Made by a program: the position numbers and the translations under genes
Notes under the pieces: generated by a model
Told to the model about the DNA's origin: nothing
What the model saw: only the letters and a program-made list of their open reading frames with translations
Database searches by the model: none
Part shown: positions 35,226 through 40,099 of the stretch, one piece after another
Position numbering within the stretch: position 1 is the first letter of the stretch
How the letters are laid out: the number at the start of each line of letters is the position of its first letter
Assembly: GCA_002696035.1 (NCBI GenBank)
Contig: NZQV01000018.1
Coordinates: forward strand, 62,001 to 126,000
DNA from: Balneola sp.
Lineage (GTDB): Bacteria > Bacteroidota > Rhodothermia > Balneolales > Balneolaceae
Reading direction: 5' to 3'
DNA: 64,000 bases

Positions 35226-37451
35226 ATGGCTATGGAAAACTCTAATAACACTGAAGGTAAATGTCCTTTTCCTCACGGAAATGTTGACAAAAGAGAGGTT
35301 GCCGGGGGCGGAACTAAAAACCGCGATTGGTGGCCAAACAAATTGAACCTCGAAATTTTACGTCAGCACTCAAATCTGTCTGACCCAATGGGTGATGATT
35401 TTGATTATGCTGAAGAATTTAAATCACTGGATCTGAACGCGGTCAAAAAAGATCTGAACGATCTGATGACTGATTCAAAAGACTGGTGGCCTGCTGACTG
35501 GGGACATTACGGACCGCTTTTCATCCGAATGTCTTGGCACAGTGCTGGAACATACCGCGTGGCAGATGGTCGTGGAGGCGCCGGAACCGGAAATCAGCGT
35601 TTTGCTCCGGTAAATAGCTGGCCCGACAATGTAAGTTTAGATAAAGCACGCCGACTGCTTTGGCCCATCAAACAAAAATATGGGAAGCAACTTTCCTGGG
35701 CTGATCTTTTGATCCTAGCCGGAAACGTAGCTCTGGAATCCATGGGCTTTGAGACCTTTGGTTTTGCCGGTGGACGTAAAGATGCATGGGAACCTGAAAA
35801 AGATATCAACTGGGGACCTGAGCAAGAGTGGTTGGCTAACGAGCGCCACGATGAAGACGGAAACCTGGAAGGGCGACTGGCTGCCGACCACATGGGACTT
35901 ATTTACGTAAATCCTGAAGGTCCTAATGGTGAGCCTGATCCTAAAAAAGCGGCGAAATTTATCCGTCAGTCTTTCAAAAGAATGGCTATGGGTGATGAAG
36001 AAACCGTAGCACTAATTGCTGGCGGACACACTTTCGGAAAAGTTCATGGTGCAGCTCCTGAAGAACATAACGGACCTGACCCGGAAGCAGCTCCTATGGA
36101 AGAAATGGGACTTGGCTGGAATAACGACTATGGAACCGGAAAAGGTGCTGATACTATCACCAGTGGATTAGAAGGCGCCTGGACCAACGAACCCCTGAAA
36201 TGGGATATGGGATTCTTTGAGAATCTGTTTGAATACGAGTGGGAACTGACAAAGAGTCCTGCGGGAAAATATCAGTGGCAGCCTAAAGACGGAGCCGGTG
36301 ACGGAACCGTACCTGACGCTCATGACCCAGACAAAAAGAATGCACCTATGATGCTCACCACAGATCTTGCTTTGATTGAAGATCCTGAGTATCGCAAAAT
36401 TTCCGAGCGCTTCTACAACAATCCAGATGAATTTGCGGATGTTTTTGCACGCGCCTGGTTCAAATTGGTTCACCGTGATATGGGACCAAAATCCCGTTAT
36501 ATCGGACCTGAAGTTCCTGAAGAAGATCTGATCTGGCAGGATCCAATTCCGGCCGTAGATCACGAACTGATCGACGAAAACGATATCGAAGACCTGAAAG
36601 GCAAGATCCTGGATAGCGGACTTTCTGTATCTGAGCTAGTGAGAACTGCCTGGGCTTCTGCTTCCACTTACCGCGATTCTGACAAGCGTGGTGGTGCAAA
36701 CGGCGCCCGCGTTCGCCTGGCTCCTCAAAAAGCATGGGATGTCAACAATCCGGACGAACTCAGTAAAGTACTTGATGCACTTGAAGGCATTCAAAAATCA
36801 TTCAACGATGCTCAGTCCGGAGACAAGAAAGTTTCTCTGGCTGACCTGATCGTACTGGGCGGATGTGCTGCTATTGAAAAAGCAGCAAAAGATGCCGGTC
36901 ATGATGTAACGGTACCATTCACTCCGGGTCGAACTGATGCCACTGACGAGCAAACTGATGTGGAATCCTTCGAATGGCTACGACCTGAAGCGGACGGTTT
37001 CCGAAATTACTTCAAACCACATGCACGTCGTATTGCCACTGAAGAAGAAATGCTGGTTGACAAAGCTCAGCTGCTTTCACTGACGGCTCCTGAAATGACG
37101 GTGCTGGTTGGCGGAATGCGTGCACTGGATGCCAACTTTGACGGCTCCAAGCATGGCATATTCACCGACAAGCCAGGAACGCTCACCAACGATTTCTTCC
37201 TCAATCTCCTTGATCTGAGATACGAGTGGAAAGCCGTTTCTGAGGATGAGCGTTTATTCGAAGCGAAAGACCGTGACAGCGGCGAAGTGAAATGGACGGC
37301 TACCCGTTCTGATCTGATCTTTGGTTCAAACTCAGAACTCCGCGCCGTTGCAGAAGTGTACGGAAGCGAAGATTCTGAAGAGAAGTTCATCAACGACTTC
37401 GTACAAGCCTGGGATAAGGTAATGAACCTCGATCGTTTCGATCTGAAGTAA
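35226..37451 (+). CDS. katG: Catalase-peroxidase
   Basis: This bifunctional haem enzyme removes H2O2. The 741-aa protein has two peroxidase-like halves. The N-terminal half has the distal [10 protein letters not shown] (Trp104, His105), Tyr227 in [10 protein letters not shown] and Met253 for the Met-Tyr-Trp adduct, and the proximal His268 in [11 protein letters not shown]. The C-terminal half carries [27 protein letters not shown] could start at either ATG. Its last ~40 bp and terminator are duplicated downstream of the sulfur module. Confidence 0.98.
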
Positions 37452-37545
37452 ATTGATCCATTCCAATACATGGTGACGGCGCTCCGCGACGCCACCAAAT
37501 TGATATTACAAAGGCAGTCTGATTTAATTCAGGCTGCCTTTTTTT
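37412..37545 (+). repeat. 134-bp direct repeat, copy A (katG 3' end plus terminator)
   Basis: It matches 39966-40099 with about 7 differences and no gaps. It contains the last 13 codons of katG, a GGTGACG-type hairpin and the katG terminator. Confidence 0.93.
37511..37545 (+). terminator. katG terminator
   Basis: AAGGCAG-TCTGA and TTCAG-GCTGCCTT arms around TTTAA, then T7. The near-identical second copy is at 40065-40099. Confidence 0.93.
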
Positions 37546-37722
37546 ATGCTTATTTGTTTTGCACCGTGAGGTCGGGGATAATAATTCCGACTAAGATGTT
37601 GGATAGAATGTTAAGGTTTTCGGGCAATTATCAGGCATAGCTATGGCATCACGATATTCAGATCTGGATAAACGTATAATATTCTCCTGTTCTTCATAAT
37701 ATTTTCACAATTATTTTCTAAA

Positions 37723-37748
37723 ATCATTCAATAATTATATTGAATGAT
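37723..37748 (+). promoter_or_regulatory. Perfect 11-bp dyad upstream of the SQR-like gene
   Basis: ATCATTCAATA (37723-37733), ATTA, then TATTGAATGAT (37738-37748) is a perfect inverted repeat, 22 bp before the start codon. It looks like a winged-helix (ArsR- or CRP/FNR-type) operator; the regulator is not identified in this module. Confidence 0.7.
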
Positions 37749-37770
37749 TGAATCTAACCGAGGGGTTGCC

Positions 37771-39057: not shown

Positions 39058-39375
39058 ATGACTACTGAAGCAAAAAATGATAAAACCGTAGTATTAGACC
39101 AAGATGGCCATTTGGCCAATCGTGAAGACTGGAACGAGGAGTTAGCGCAGGAACTGGCCTACCACGAAAATATTGGCGAACTCACGGATCGCCATTGGGA
39201 AGTGATAAACTATATTCGGGATGAATTTGATAAAAAGGGAGATGCTCCGTCTATACGTAAGCTTACCAAAGAAAGTGGTGTTTCAACTAAAGAACTTTAC
39301 AAATTATTTCCAAAGGGTCCGGCCAAGAAAGCTGCAAAAGTAGCCGGTTTACCTAAACCCAAAGGATGTATTTAA
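39058..39375 (+). CDS. TusE/DsrC/DsvC family protein lacking the second cysteine
   Basis: The 105-aa protein ends GPAKKAAKVAGLPKPKGCI, the mobile arm of this family. The penultimate Cys (C104, CysA) is present, but the position 11 residues earlier, Cys in true DsrC, is Ala93. So it should act as a single-thiol persulfide carrier, as TusE does, and cannot form the DsrC intramolecular trisulfide. GAGGG precedes its start. It lies 9 bp after the SQR-like gene. Confidence 0.88.
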   Translation: MTTEAKNDKTVVLDQDGHLANREDWNEELAQELAYHENIGELTDRHWEVINYIRDEFDKKGDAPSIRKLTKESGVSTKELYKLFPKGPAKKAAKVAGLPKPKGCI

Positions 39376-39390
39376 CCAAAGGAGATCGCT

Positions 39391-39912
39391 ATGACTACAT
39401 TTGTGACTCAGGATAAAAAAAATGGTGAACGAGAGCAGGAGTCTGCTGCAAAACCCATCGAAAAGGTGTCTATCATTATTTCTAAGGGATCGCTTGAAGA
39501 AGTTTACCCTGGATTAATTATGGCAAATGGAGCCCGGATGGAAGGAATTGAAGCAACCATATTTTTCACCTTTTTTGGTTTGGATGCCATTATAGATAAT
39601 AGAATGGACAAGCTGAAAGTGGCTACAGTAGGAAATCCCGCTATGCATATTCCCACTATGGTCGGCGGCTTGCCTGGAATGTCAGCTTTTGCTACCAAAA
39701 AAATGAAGAAAGAAATCGAGAAATTAGACATTCCTCCAGTTCGTGAATTCATAGAAATGATACATGACACGGGCGCTGAAATCTATGCATGTCGGGCTAC
39801 GGTAGATATGTTTCATCTGGATGAAAGAGACTTTTGTGAACAGGTAGATGGAATCATTTCTGTAGGTGAGTTTTACGAAAAGTCAGCTGGGGCAGAAATC
39901 ATTTTCACCTGA
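39391..39912 (+). CDS. DsrE2-like sulfur relay protein
   Basis: The 173-aa protein begins with a polar tail and then a DsrE-type fold: KVSIIISKGSLEEVYPGLIMA, TIFFTFFGLDAI, and AEIYACRATVDMF with the probable active Cys, followed by VDGIISVGEFYEKS. The large middle insertion with PTMVGGLPGMSAFATKKM is typical of DsrE2 proteins. GGAG lies before the ATG. With SQR- and TusE-like neighbours it probably carries persulfide from sulfide oxidation; sulfur acceptor enzymes are not in the window. Confidence 0.87.
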   Translation: MTTFVTQDKKNGEREQESAAKPIEKVSIIISKGSLEEVYPGLIMANGARMEGIEATIFFTFFGLDAIIDNRMDKLKVATVGNPAMHIPTMVGGLPGMSAFATKKMKKEIEKLDIPPVREFIEMIHDTGAEIYACRATVDMFHLDERDFCEQVDGIISVGEFYEKSAGAEIIFT

Positions 39913-39965
39913 TATTCAACTCCCTATGCATGCTCAAATACAATGAGAATTCAGTGTTGACGATA

Positions 39966-40099
39966 GGATAAGGTAATGAACCTGGATCGTTTCGATCTGA
40001 AGTAATTTGATCCATTCCAATACCTGGTGACGGCGCTCCGCGTCGTCACCAAATTGATATTACAAAGGCAGTCTGATTTATTTCAGGCTGCCTTTTTTT
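39966..40099 (+). repeat. 134-bp direct repeat, copy B (katG 3' remnant plus terminator)
   Basis: A copy of 37412-37545 downstream of the sulfur module. It still encodes the last katG codons in frame to the stop but has no gene attached. It supplies a terminator for the module. Confidence 0.93.

What the first reader, a model, noticed from the sequence alone, without database searches (positions are those of the whole stretch)
37412..40099. Sulfur module inserted between duplicated katG ends
The last 13 katG codons plus terminator (134 bp) are repeated at ~95% identity without gaps after the SQR/TusE/DsrE2 genes. The repeat keeps the gene end intact on the left and leaves a headless remnant on the right. 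This is what integration at, or tandem duplication around, a gene 3' end would leave.
Basis: partly seen in the sequence, partly recalled or inferred. Interest (0 to 1): 0.75.

Follow-up and report, generated by a model that had tools for sequence, protein, structure and literature searches.

The report
Sulfur genes inserted at katG end
A small set of sulfide-oxidation genes was added right behind a catalase gene in a bacterium, and a headless copy of the catalase gene's tail lies behind them like a fossil; it looks like a recombination event rather than a mobile element, and similar scars turn up elsewhere in this genus.

Summary
A 134-bp direct repeat (128 of 134 identical) holds the last 12 katG codons, the stop and the terminator. 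It brackets sqr-tusE-dsrE2; the genome has no third copy. Insertion is supported. The operon occurs in 8 of 91 other family genomes (sqr 71-89% identical), never beside katG and without the repeat. Relatives keep katG and its neighbours without the operon. Site-specific integration is not supported: no recombinase among the insert genes, no tyrosine-recombinase hit on the 232-kb contig. The genus (Gracilimonas) shows three more scars of this shape: intact gene, insert, headless copy of its own 3' end (pntB, a 315-aa gene, ribF). In two, the headless copy is best read as the resident's original tail. In ribF, the DNA just behind the intact gene matches the ribF locus of two other species. Best reading: recombination anchored in the host gene added foreign DNA and stranded the old tail, as in single-crossover insertion-duplication or homology-facilitated illegitimate recombination. 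For katG itself, donor and polarity are unproven.

The parts
35226..37451 (+). katG, intact catalase-peroxidase; a xenolog in this genus (95% aa to G021, 75-79% to the main katG of 7 other genus members, up to 86% to genus g11)
   Evidence: TIGR00198
37412..37545 (+). left repeat copy: 12 last katG codons, stop, 58-nt segment with a first hairpin, terminator
37546..37692 (.). spacer between left repeat and conserved module; no homology at the 8 other family module loci
37722..37749 (.). inverted repeat upstream of sqr (12-bp stem, 4-nt loop), possible operator
37771..39048 (+). sqr, type III sulfide:quinone reductase-like
   Evidence: NF049943, 667 bits, cut-off 525
39058..39375 (+). TusE/DsrC-family sulfur relay protein with a penultimate Cys
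39391..39912 (+). DsrE2-like protein (above the Pfam cut-off for PF13686, below the NCBIfam equivalog cut-off for DsrE2)
39966..40099 (+). right repeat copy: headless katG 3' end with terminator; its first hairpin is a perfect 12-bp stem, which two of the six differences break in the left copy
40174..41067 (-). orphan lipoprotein-like gene (named by eye), found in 1 of 92 family genomes (this one); native or inserted unknown

Best explanation
The module was added by recombination anchored in the katG 3' end. Foreign DNA carrying a katG tail plus sqr-tusE-dsrE2 recombined with the resident katG, so katG stays intact with the incoming tail and terminator. The insert follows, and the resident's own tail (12 codons, stop, terminator) is left headless on the right. 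Either a single crossover with a re-circularised fragment, or homology on one side and illegitimate joining on the other, gives this product; no integrase is needed. Shown here: the repeat, the insertion relative to relatives, the absence of a recombinase gene in the insert, and sister cases in which the headless copy looks like the resident's old tail (pntB, a 315-aa gene) or the DNA behind the intact gene matches another species' locus (ribF). Inferred: that katG went the same way, which copy is the resident one, and how the DNA entered. Once in place the operon is presumably read from its own promoter, oxidises sulfide to the quinone pool and hands sulfur to DsrE2 and TusE (from the families, untested); the stranded katG terminator would end its transcript (inferred from position).
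For: Repeat and anatomy. Relatives without the module: G021 keeps pnt-FKBP-katG...MFS-argC; in G003 and G035 katG and the MFS gene are neighbours. Module patchy and elsewhere: all 8 other family genomes with sqr at 71-89% identity have katG at another place, nearest 13 kb away in G034; DNA homology is limited to the module. Sister scars: pntB in G029, 102 bp, 93%, whose headless copy is followed by DNA scoring 93 and 113 with the pntB downstream DNA of G023 and G026, against 34 or less in 4 other comparisons. A 315-aa gene in G000: headless tail 77/84 and 73/84 identical to G027 and G021, against 66/84 and 62/84 for the intact tail, while the gene body is 76% identical to both; the headless tail sits next to a convergent gene whose homologs adjoin this gene in 4 relatives. 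ribF in G000: a 111-aa ORF follows ribF at the same distance in G022 and G024, with no ribF remnant in the 1.5 kb seen; G021, G025 and G027 have ribF followed by rpsO; the other four show neither within 1.5 kb. Precedent: in E. coli 56 of 60 clones gave the PCR product for a duplication of the gene end, confirmed as 109-950 bp in 14 sequenced clones and explained by single crossovers of circular DNA (PMC3240628 section 12).
Against: No donor with katG tail and module in a row was found among 92 family genomes or the 80 genome-contig loci kept from a capped list (0 with katG). For katG itself polarity is unresolved: the gene end is conserved across the family and neither flank is clearly native. 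Both copies share a 58-nt segment not matched in the 91 other family genomes at E <= 0.001, which also fits duplication inside this lineage. The 3'-end excess is small (4 to 0 without the window case) and a control set had N-terminal remnants at one gene. One of the five scars has the reverse order (G026). Competence genes were not tested.
Confidence: 0.58

Rival explanations
1. Local tandem duplication: the module first landed behind katG, then a segment from the katG end through the module duplicated, and the second module was lost.
For: The two copies are 95.5% identical and share a 58-nt segment not seen in relatives. PMC3784515 (abstract and outline seen) shows that transformation can provoke tandem duplications.
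Against: Needs two or three events including a clean deletion. In the sister cases the two tails differ in affinity and in downstream DNA, which a plain tandem duplication does not give.
Confidence: 0.23
2. Site-specific integration of a small element at the katG 3' end, with the element restoring the gene end (att sites = the 134-bp repeat).
For: The geometry is right: intact gene on the left, remnant on the right, and gene ends are a classic att position (recalled). The genome has 17 tyrosine-recombinase hits that could act in trans.
Against: No recombinase gene in the insert; none of the 17 hits on contig C22; 66 other module loci lack bracketing repeats over 41 bp; the sister scars have other repeats and other cargo; the repeat occurs nowhere else in the genome.
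Confidence: 0.07
3. Capture of the module at a staggered break whose fill-in duplicated 134 bp of target.
For: One event, no donor with a katG tail needed; both copies share the lineage-specific segment.
Against: No Ku homolog in the genome; the duplication would be unusually long (recalled); it does not explain tails of different affinity in the sister cases.
Confidence: 0.08
4. The module is ancestral at this place and the repeat is unrelated.
For: G022 carries a close module (89% aa).
Against: None of the 9 other genus members has it beside katG; G022, G024 and G029 carry it at other loci.
Confidence: 0.02

Closest known systems
Single-crossover (Campbell, insertion-duplication) integration of a circular fragment, E. 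coli lacZ assay, PMC3240628
   Same: Insert flanked by a direct duplication of a gene's 3' end, 109-950 bp in the 14 clones sequenced there (section 12 read); here 134 bp
   Different: A laboratory selection with a known plasmid donor; here a metabolic operon of unknown donor, and the two copies differ by 4.5%
Homology-facilitated illegitimate recombination
   Same: One side joined through a homologous anchor, the other side inside the resident gene; no recombinase
   Different: Usually couples the insertion with a deletion of similar size (PMC3240628 introduction, passage seen); such a deletion was not shown here
Displaced 3' ends in Vibrio cholerae T6SS effector arrays and Rhs loci (PMC5361080)
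   Same: Incoming module displaces the resident gene and shifts its 3' end downstream (passages seen)
   Different: Those are toxin-immunity loci; here they are ordinary genes with unrelated cargo
Integrative islands that use gene 3' ends as attachment sites
   Same: Gene end restored on one side, remnant on the other (recalled)
   Different: No integrase in the insert, no repeat at module loci elsewhere, no excision evidence

Membership tests
Integrase-borne genomic island / integrative element | Recombinase gene inside the element | tested here: not met
   Only sqr, tusE and dsrE2 lie between the repeats (ORFs of 70 aa or more; Pfam); none of 17 PF00589 hits in the genome on contig C22. Serine recombinases elsewhere in the genome were not searched.
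Integrase-borne genomic island / integrative element | Same att sequence at the ends of relatives of the element | tested here: not met
   No bracketing repeat longer than 41 bp at 66 other module loci with usable flanks (65 distinct; 15 of 82 had too little flank)
Integrase-borne genomic island / integrative element | Excision circle | not testable with these tools
   No reads available
Insertion-duplication by single crossover | Insert flanked by direct copies of a gene end, one completing the gene, one headless | tested here: met
Insertion-duplication by single crossover | Incoming DNA carries homology to the resident gene end (a donor exists) | tested here: inconclusive
   No donor found for katG; for ribF a donor-type locus exists in G022 and G024
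Homology-facilitated illegitimate recombination | Non-homologous junction on one side | tested here: inconclusive
   No similarity beyond the repeat on either side, but without the donor the junction cannot be read
Homology-facilitated illegitimate recombination | Deletion of resident DNA coupled to the insertion | tested here: inconclusive
   katG is a xenolog, but G021 has the same type without the module, so the swap may be older
IS or composite transposon | Transposase and terminal inverted repeats | tested here: not met
   No transposase among the insert genes; the bracketing repeats are direct gene ends

The most novel reading that the evidence does not exclude
Gracilimonas gains genes repeatedly by a recombinase-free route aimed at the 3' ends of ordinary genes: the host gene serves as the anchor, the cargo lands behind it, and the old tail is stranded. 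Such headless tails would be a countable fossil record of single gene gains, with a bias for 3' over 5' ends (5 to 0 in 2.53 Mb of sequence, counting the window case that was found first).
Probability: 0.35. Interest if true: 0.6.

Novelty: new member of a known kind. Interest (0 to 1): 0.42.

Why it matters
It shows how a complete sulfide-oxidation operon can be added to a chromosome without a visible integrase or transposon and without breaking the target gene. The scar records the event: in favourable cases the headless tail tells resident from incoming DNA. If the genus-wide pattern holds, headless gene tails would allow small gene gains to be counted, and donors named, in genomes without recognisable mobile elements.

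Tried and rejected
A mobile repeat family: only two copies in the genome. A known RNA element: no Rfam match at gathering score in 35000-43000. A longer repeat with an indel downstream: not better than shuffles. End joining by Ku: no Ku found. The module as a repeat-bracketed unit elsewhere: no (82 loci entered, 15 had too little flank, 7 of the 80 genome-contig loci had no DsrE2 hit and were not entered, L068 repeats the contig of L048). Deciding katG polarity from the six differences: one lies in the coding part (CTC in the left copy and in G021, CTG in the right copy and in several other family katG ends); judged too weak. A possible further scar beside the 373-aa gene next to the 315-aa gene (weak second hit): its frame is open over 382 codons, so it is an intact tandem relative, not a remnant.

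Dropped rows and corrections: the identity row for G026 was one base out of register (29-33%) and was ignored. In one search tail identities were out of register because the match ended at residue 306; redone. In one search minus-strand loci were not turned; redone, where 2 of 29 loci (L024, L037) still gave no motif. L276 is a second copy of L268 (G024) and was counted once. On checking, the 315-aa gene has no Pfam match, so 'glycosylase', used in my notes, is only an impression; ribF, rpsO and pntB are confirmed by Pfam. My notes speak of a 57-bp segment; it is 58 nt (37452-37509).

Results against the reading: one search also listed two internal remnants in the genus set (G029 168-aa ORF, L058 510-aa ORF). 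Its control set (79 genome-contig loci, none from the genus, 1.03 Mb, 850 ORFs) gave no C-terminal remnant and three N-terminal ones, all at one gene in L089. So N-terminal remnants do occur, and the 3' bias is not established.

Literature: searches returned listings. I saw nothing there on gene-end scars in Gracilimonas, which is no claim that none is in print. PMC3240628: section 12 and passages; PMC5361080: passages; PMC3784515: abstract and outline.

Full report
The two copies, 37412-37545 and 39966-40099, align over 134 nt without gaps and differ at six places. The left copy is the end of an intact katG: 12 sense codons, the stop, a 58-nt segment with a first hairpin, and a terminator hairpin with a T run. 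The right copy has no gene in front of it. The genome has no third copy. Similarity stops at the ends of the 134 nt.

Between the copies lie three genes: a type III sulfide:quinone reductase-like protein, a TusE/DsrC-family protein and a DsrE2-like protein. The group is an old operon: of 80 genome-contig loci kept for sqr relatives, 73 also have both partners and none has katG within the fetched flank.

The module is a newcomer at this place. Of 92 family genomes 10 have an sqr match at E of 1e-50 or better: the window's own genome, one 30% relative (G062), and 8 others at 71-89% identity, all 8 with tusE and dsrE2 beside it. All 8 have katG elsewhere, nearest 13 kb away. katG was found in 77 of 92. 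DNA homology between the window and those 8 loci lies within 37693-39915, so the katG end does not travel with the module. The nearest relative by katG, G021, has the same flanking genes without the module; in G003 and G035 katG and the MFS gene are direct neighbours. What lies behind katG varies in the genus; I recognised no integrase there by eye, but those ORFs were not run against a family library. sqr of G000 is closest to G022 (89%), whereas its MFS gene is least like that of G022 (81%, against 84-88% for the 8 other genus members), which points to horizontal gain.

An integrase-driven insertion is not supported: no recombinase gene in the insert, and none of the 17 tyrosine-recombinase hits of the genome on contig C22. 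Action in trans cannot be excluded. Ku was not found.

The search for comparable scars was the most informative step. In 2.53 Mb (window, stretches of four genus genomes and 27 fetched loci; 1,896 ORFs of at least 130 aa) a protein-level scan found four C-terminal remnants near their intact gene, no N-terminal one and two internal ones. The katG case, too short for that scan, is a fifth C-terminal one. (1) pntB in G029: the last 102 bp are repeated 1.26 kb downstream, behind a convergent 340-aa gene. (2) A 315-aa gene of G000 without a Pfam match: the last 28 codons are repeated 1.2 kb downstream, behind a convergent 361-aa gene. (3) ribF of G000: a decayed tail lies behind a convergent 111-aa ORF. 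(4) A 215-aa gene with a secretion tail in G026, where the remnant lies upstream instead of downstream: an exception I cannot explain. The ratio of 5 to 0 includes the case that started the search; 4 to 0 is not significant by itself. In a control of 79 loci from outside the genus the ratio was 0 to 3, the three hits being at one gene.

Three scars tell something about direction. For pntB the headless copy is followed by DNA that matches the pntB downstream region of G023 and G026 (scores 93 and 113; 34 or less in the other comparisons), whereas the DNA behind the intact copy scores 29 or less with all. So the headless copy is best read as the resident's old tail. For the 315-aa gene the headless tail is 77/84 and 73/84 identical to G027 and G021, against 66/84 and 62/84 for the intact tail, while the gene body is 76% identical to both; over nine relatives the headless tail is the closer one in seven. 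It sits next to a convergent gene whose homologs (34-38% identical) adjoin this gene in G021, G024, G025 and G027. Relatives of the inserted 361-aa gene lie about 3.1 kb (G024, 54%) and 1.7 kb (G023, 35%) from the same host gene. For ribF, G022 and G024 carry the 111-aa ORF at the same distance behind ribF, without a ribF remnant in the 1.5 kb seen; G021, G025 and G027 have ribF followed by rpsO; G023, G026, G028 and G029 show neither within that flank. The DNA just behind the intact ribF of G000 is therefore of the G022/G024 type (scores 236 and 202, 36 or less elsewhere), and the best match of the stranded tail is G028. The DNA behind the ribF remnant is not clearly native, and inheritance of the 111-aa ORF from a common ancestor with G022/G024 is not ruled out.

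These sister cases make host-gene-anchored recombination the best reading for katG as well: the incoming tail completes the gene, cargo follows, the old tail is stranded. The literature has the product: in E. coli, 56 of 60 clones selected as possible homology-facilitated illegitimate recombinants gave the PCR product of a lacZ-end duplication, confirmed as 109-950 bp in 14 sequenced clones and explained by single crossovers of circular molecules (PMC3240628 section 12). Displaced 3' ends at Vibrio T6SS loci are explained in a similar way (PMC5361080, passages).

For katG itself the limits are plain. No donor was found. The gene end is too conserved and the flanks too variable to say which copy is resident. 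Both copies share a 58-nt segment not matched in the 91 other family genomes, which fits either a very close donor or duplication inside the lineage. katG is a xenolog shared with G021: between G000 and G021 the pnt and MFS stretches are 79% identical and the FKBP stretch 61-63%, but katG is 84-94% in 150-nt steps. So the locus has exchanged alleles before, though the swap may predate the module. The right copy has a perfect 12-bp first hairpin that two of the six differences break in the left copy, a hint, no more, that the right copy is the less changed one.

Verdict: a real insertion scar of a known kind, with clear anatomy and, in this genus, sister cases that suggest the direction of the event.

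Noticed in passing
35226-37451: katG of the window and of G021 is a xenolog: 95% aa to each other and up to 86% to genus g11, but 75-79% to the main katG of 7 other genus members.
   Followed up: partly
40174-41067: Lipoprotein-like gene (by eye) with no match in 91 other family genomes and no Pfam or NCBIfam hit, convergent to katG; the inserts at pntB and the 315-aa gene are also convergent lipoprotein-like genes without Pfam hits.
   Followed up: partly
37771-39048: SQR scores above the cut-off of an NCBIfam model for the selenoprotein subtype of type III SQR, yet its frame has no in-frame TGA here, so it would not be a selenoprotein in this genome.
   Followed up: no
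37722-37749: 12-bp inverted repeat upstream of sqr, with a matching stretch upstream of sqr in G022; possible operator.
   Followed up: no
L058:7783-9259: About 200-bp repeat in three copies starting at the katG stop of G028; a similar start also occurs behind katG in G003; looks like a small dispersed element.
   Followed up: no
L057:3616-3994 and 8023-8399: 379-bp intergenic repeat, 90% identical, bracketing FKBP, katG and a thioredoxin-like gene in G021.
   Followed up: no
L257:14704-17465: G026: the 3' end plus about 55 bp downstream of a 215-aa secretion-tail gene is repeated (97%) about 2.6 kb upstream of the intact end, with two ORFs between; reversed order compared with the other scars.
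   Followed up: partly
L244:12328-12558: Decayed ribF 3' end with an in-frame stop between a 111-aa ORF and rpsO in the window's own genome.
   Followed up: yes
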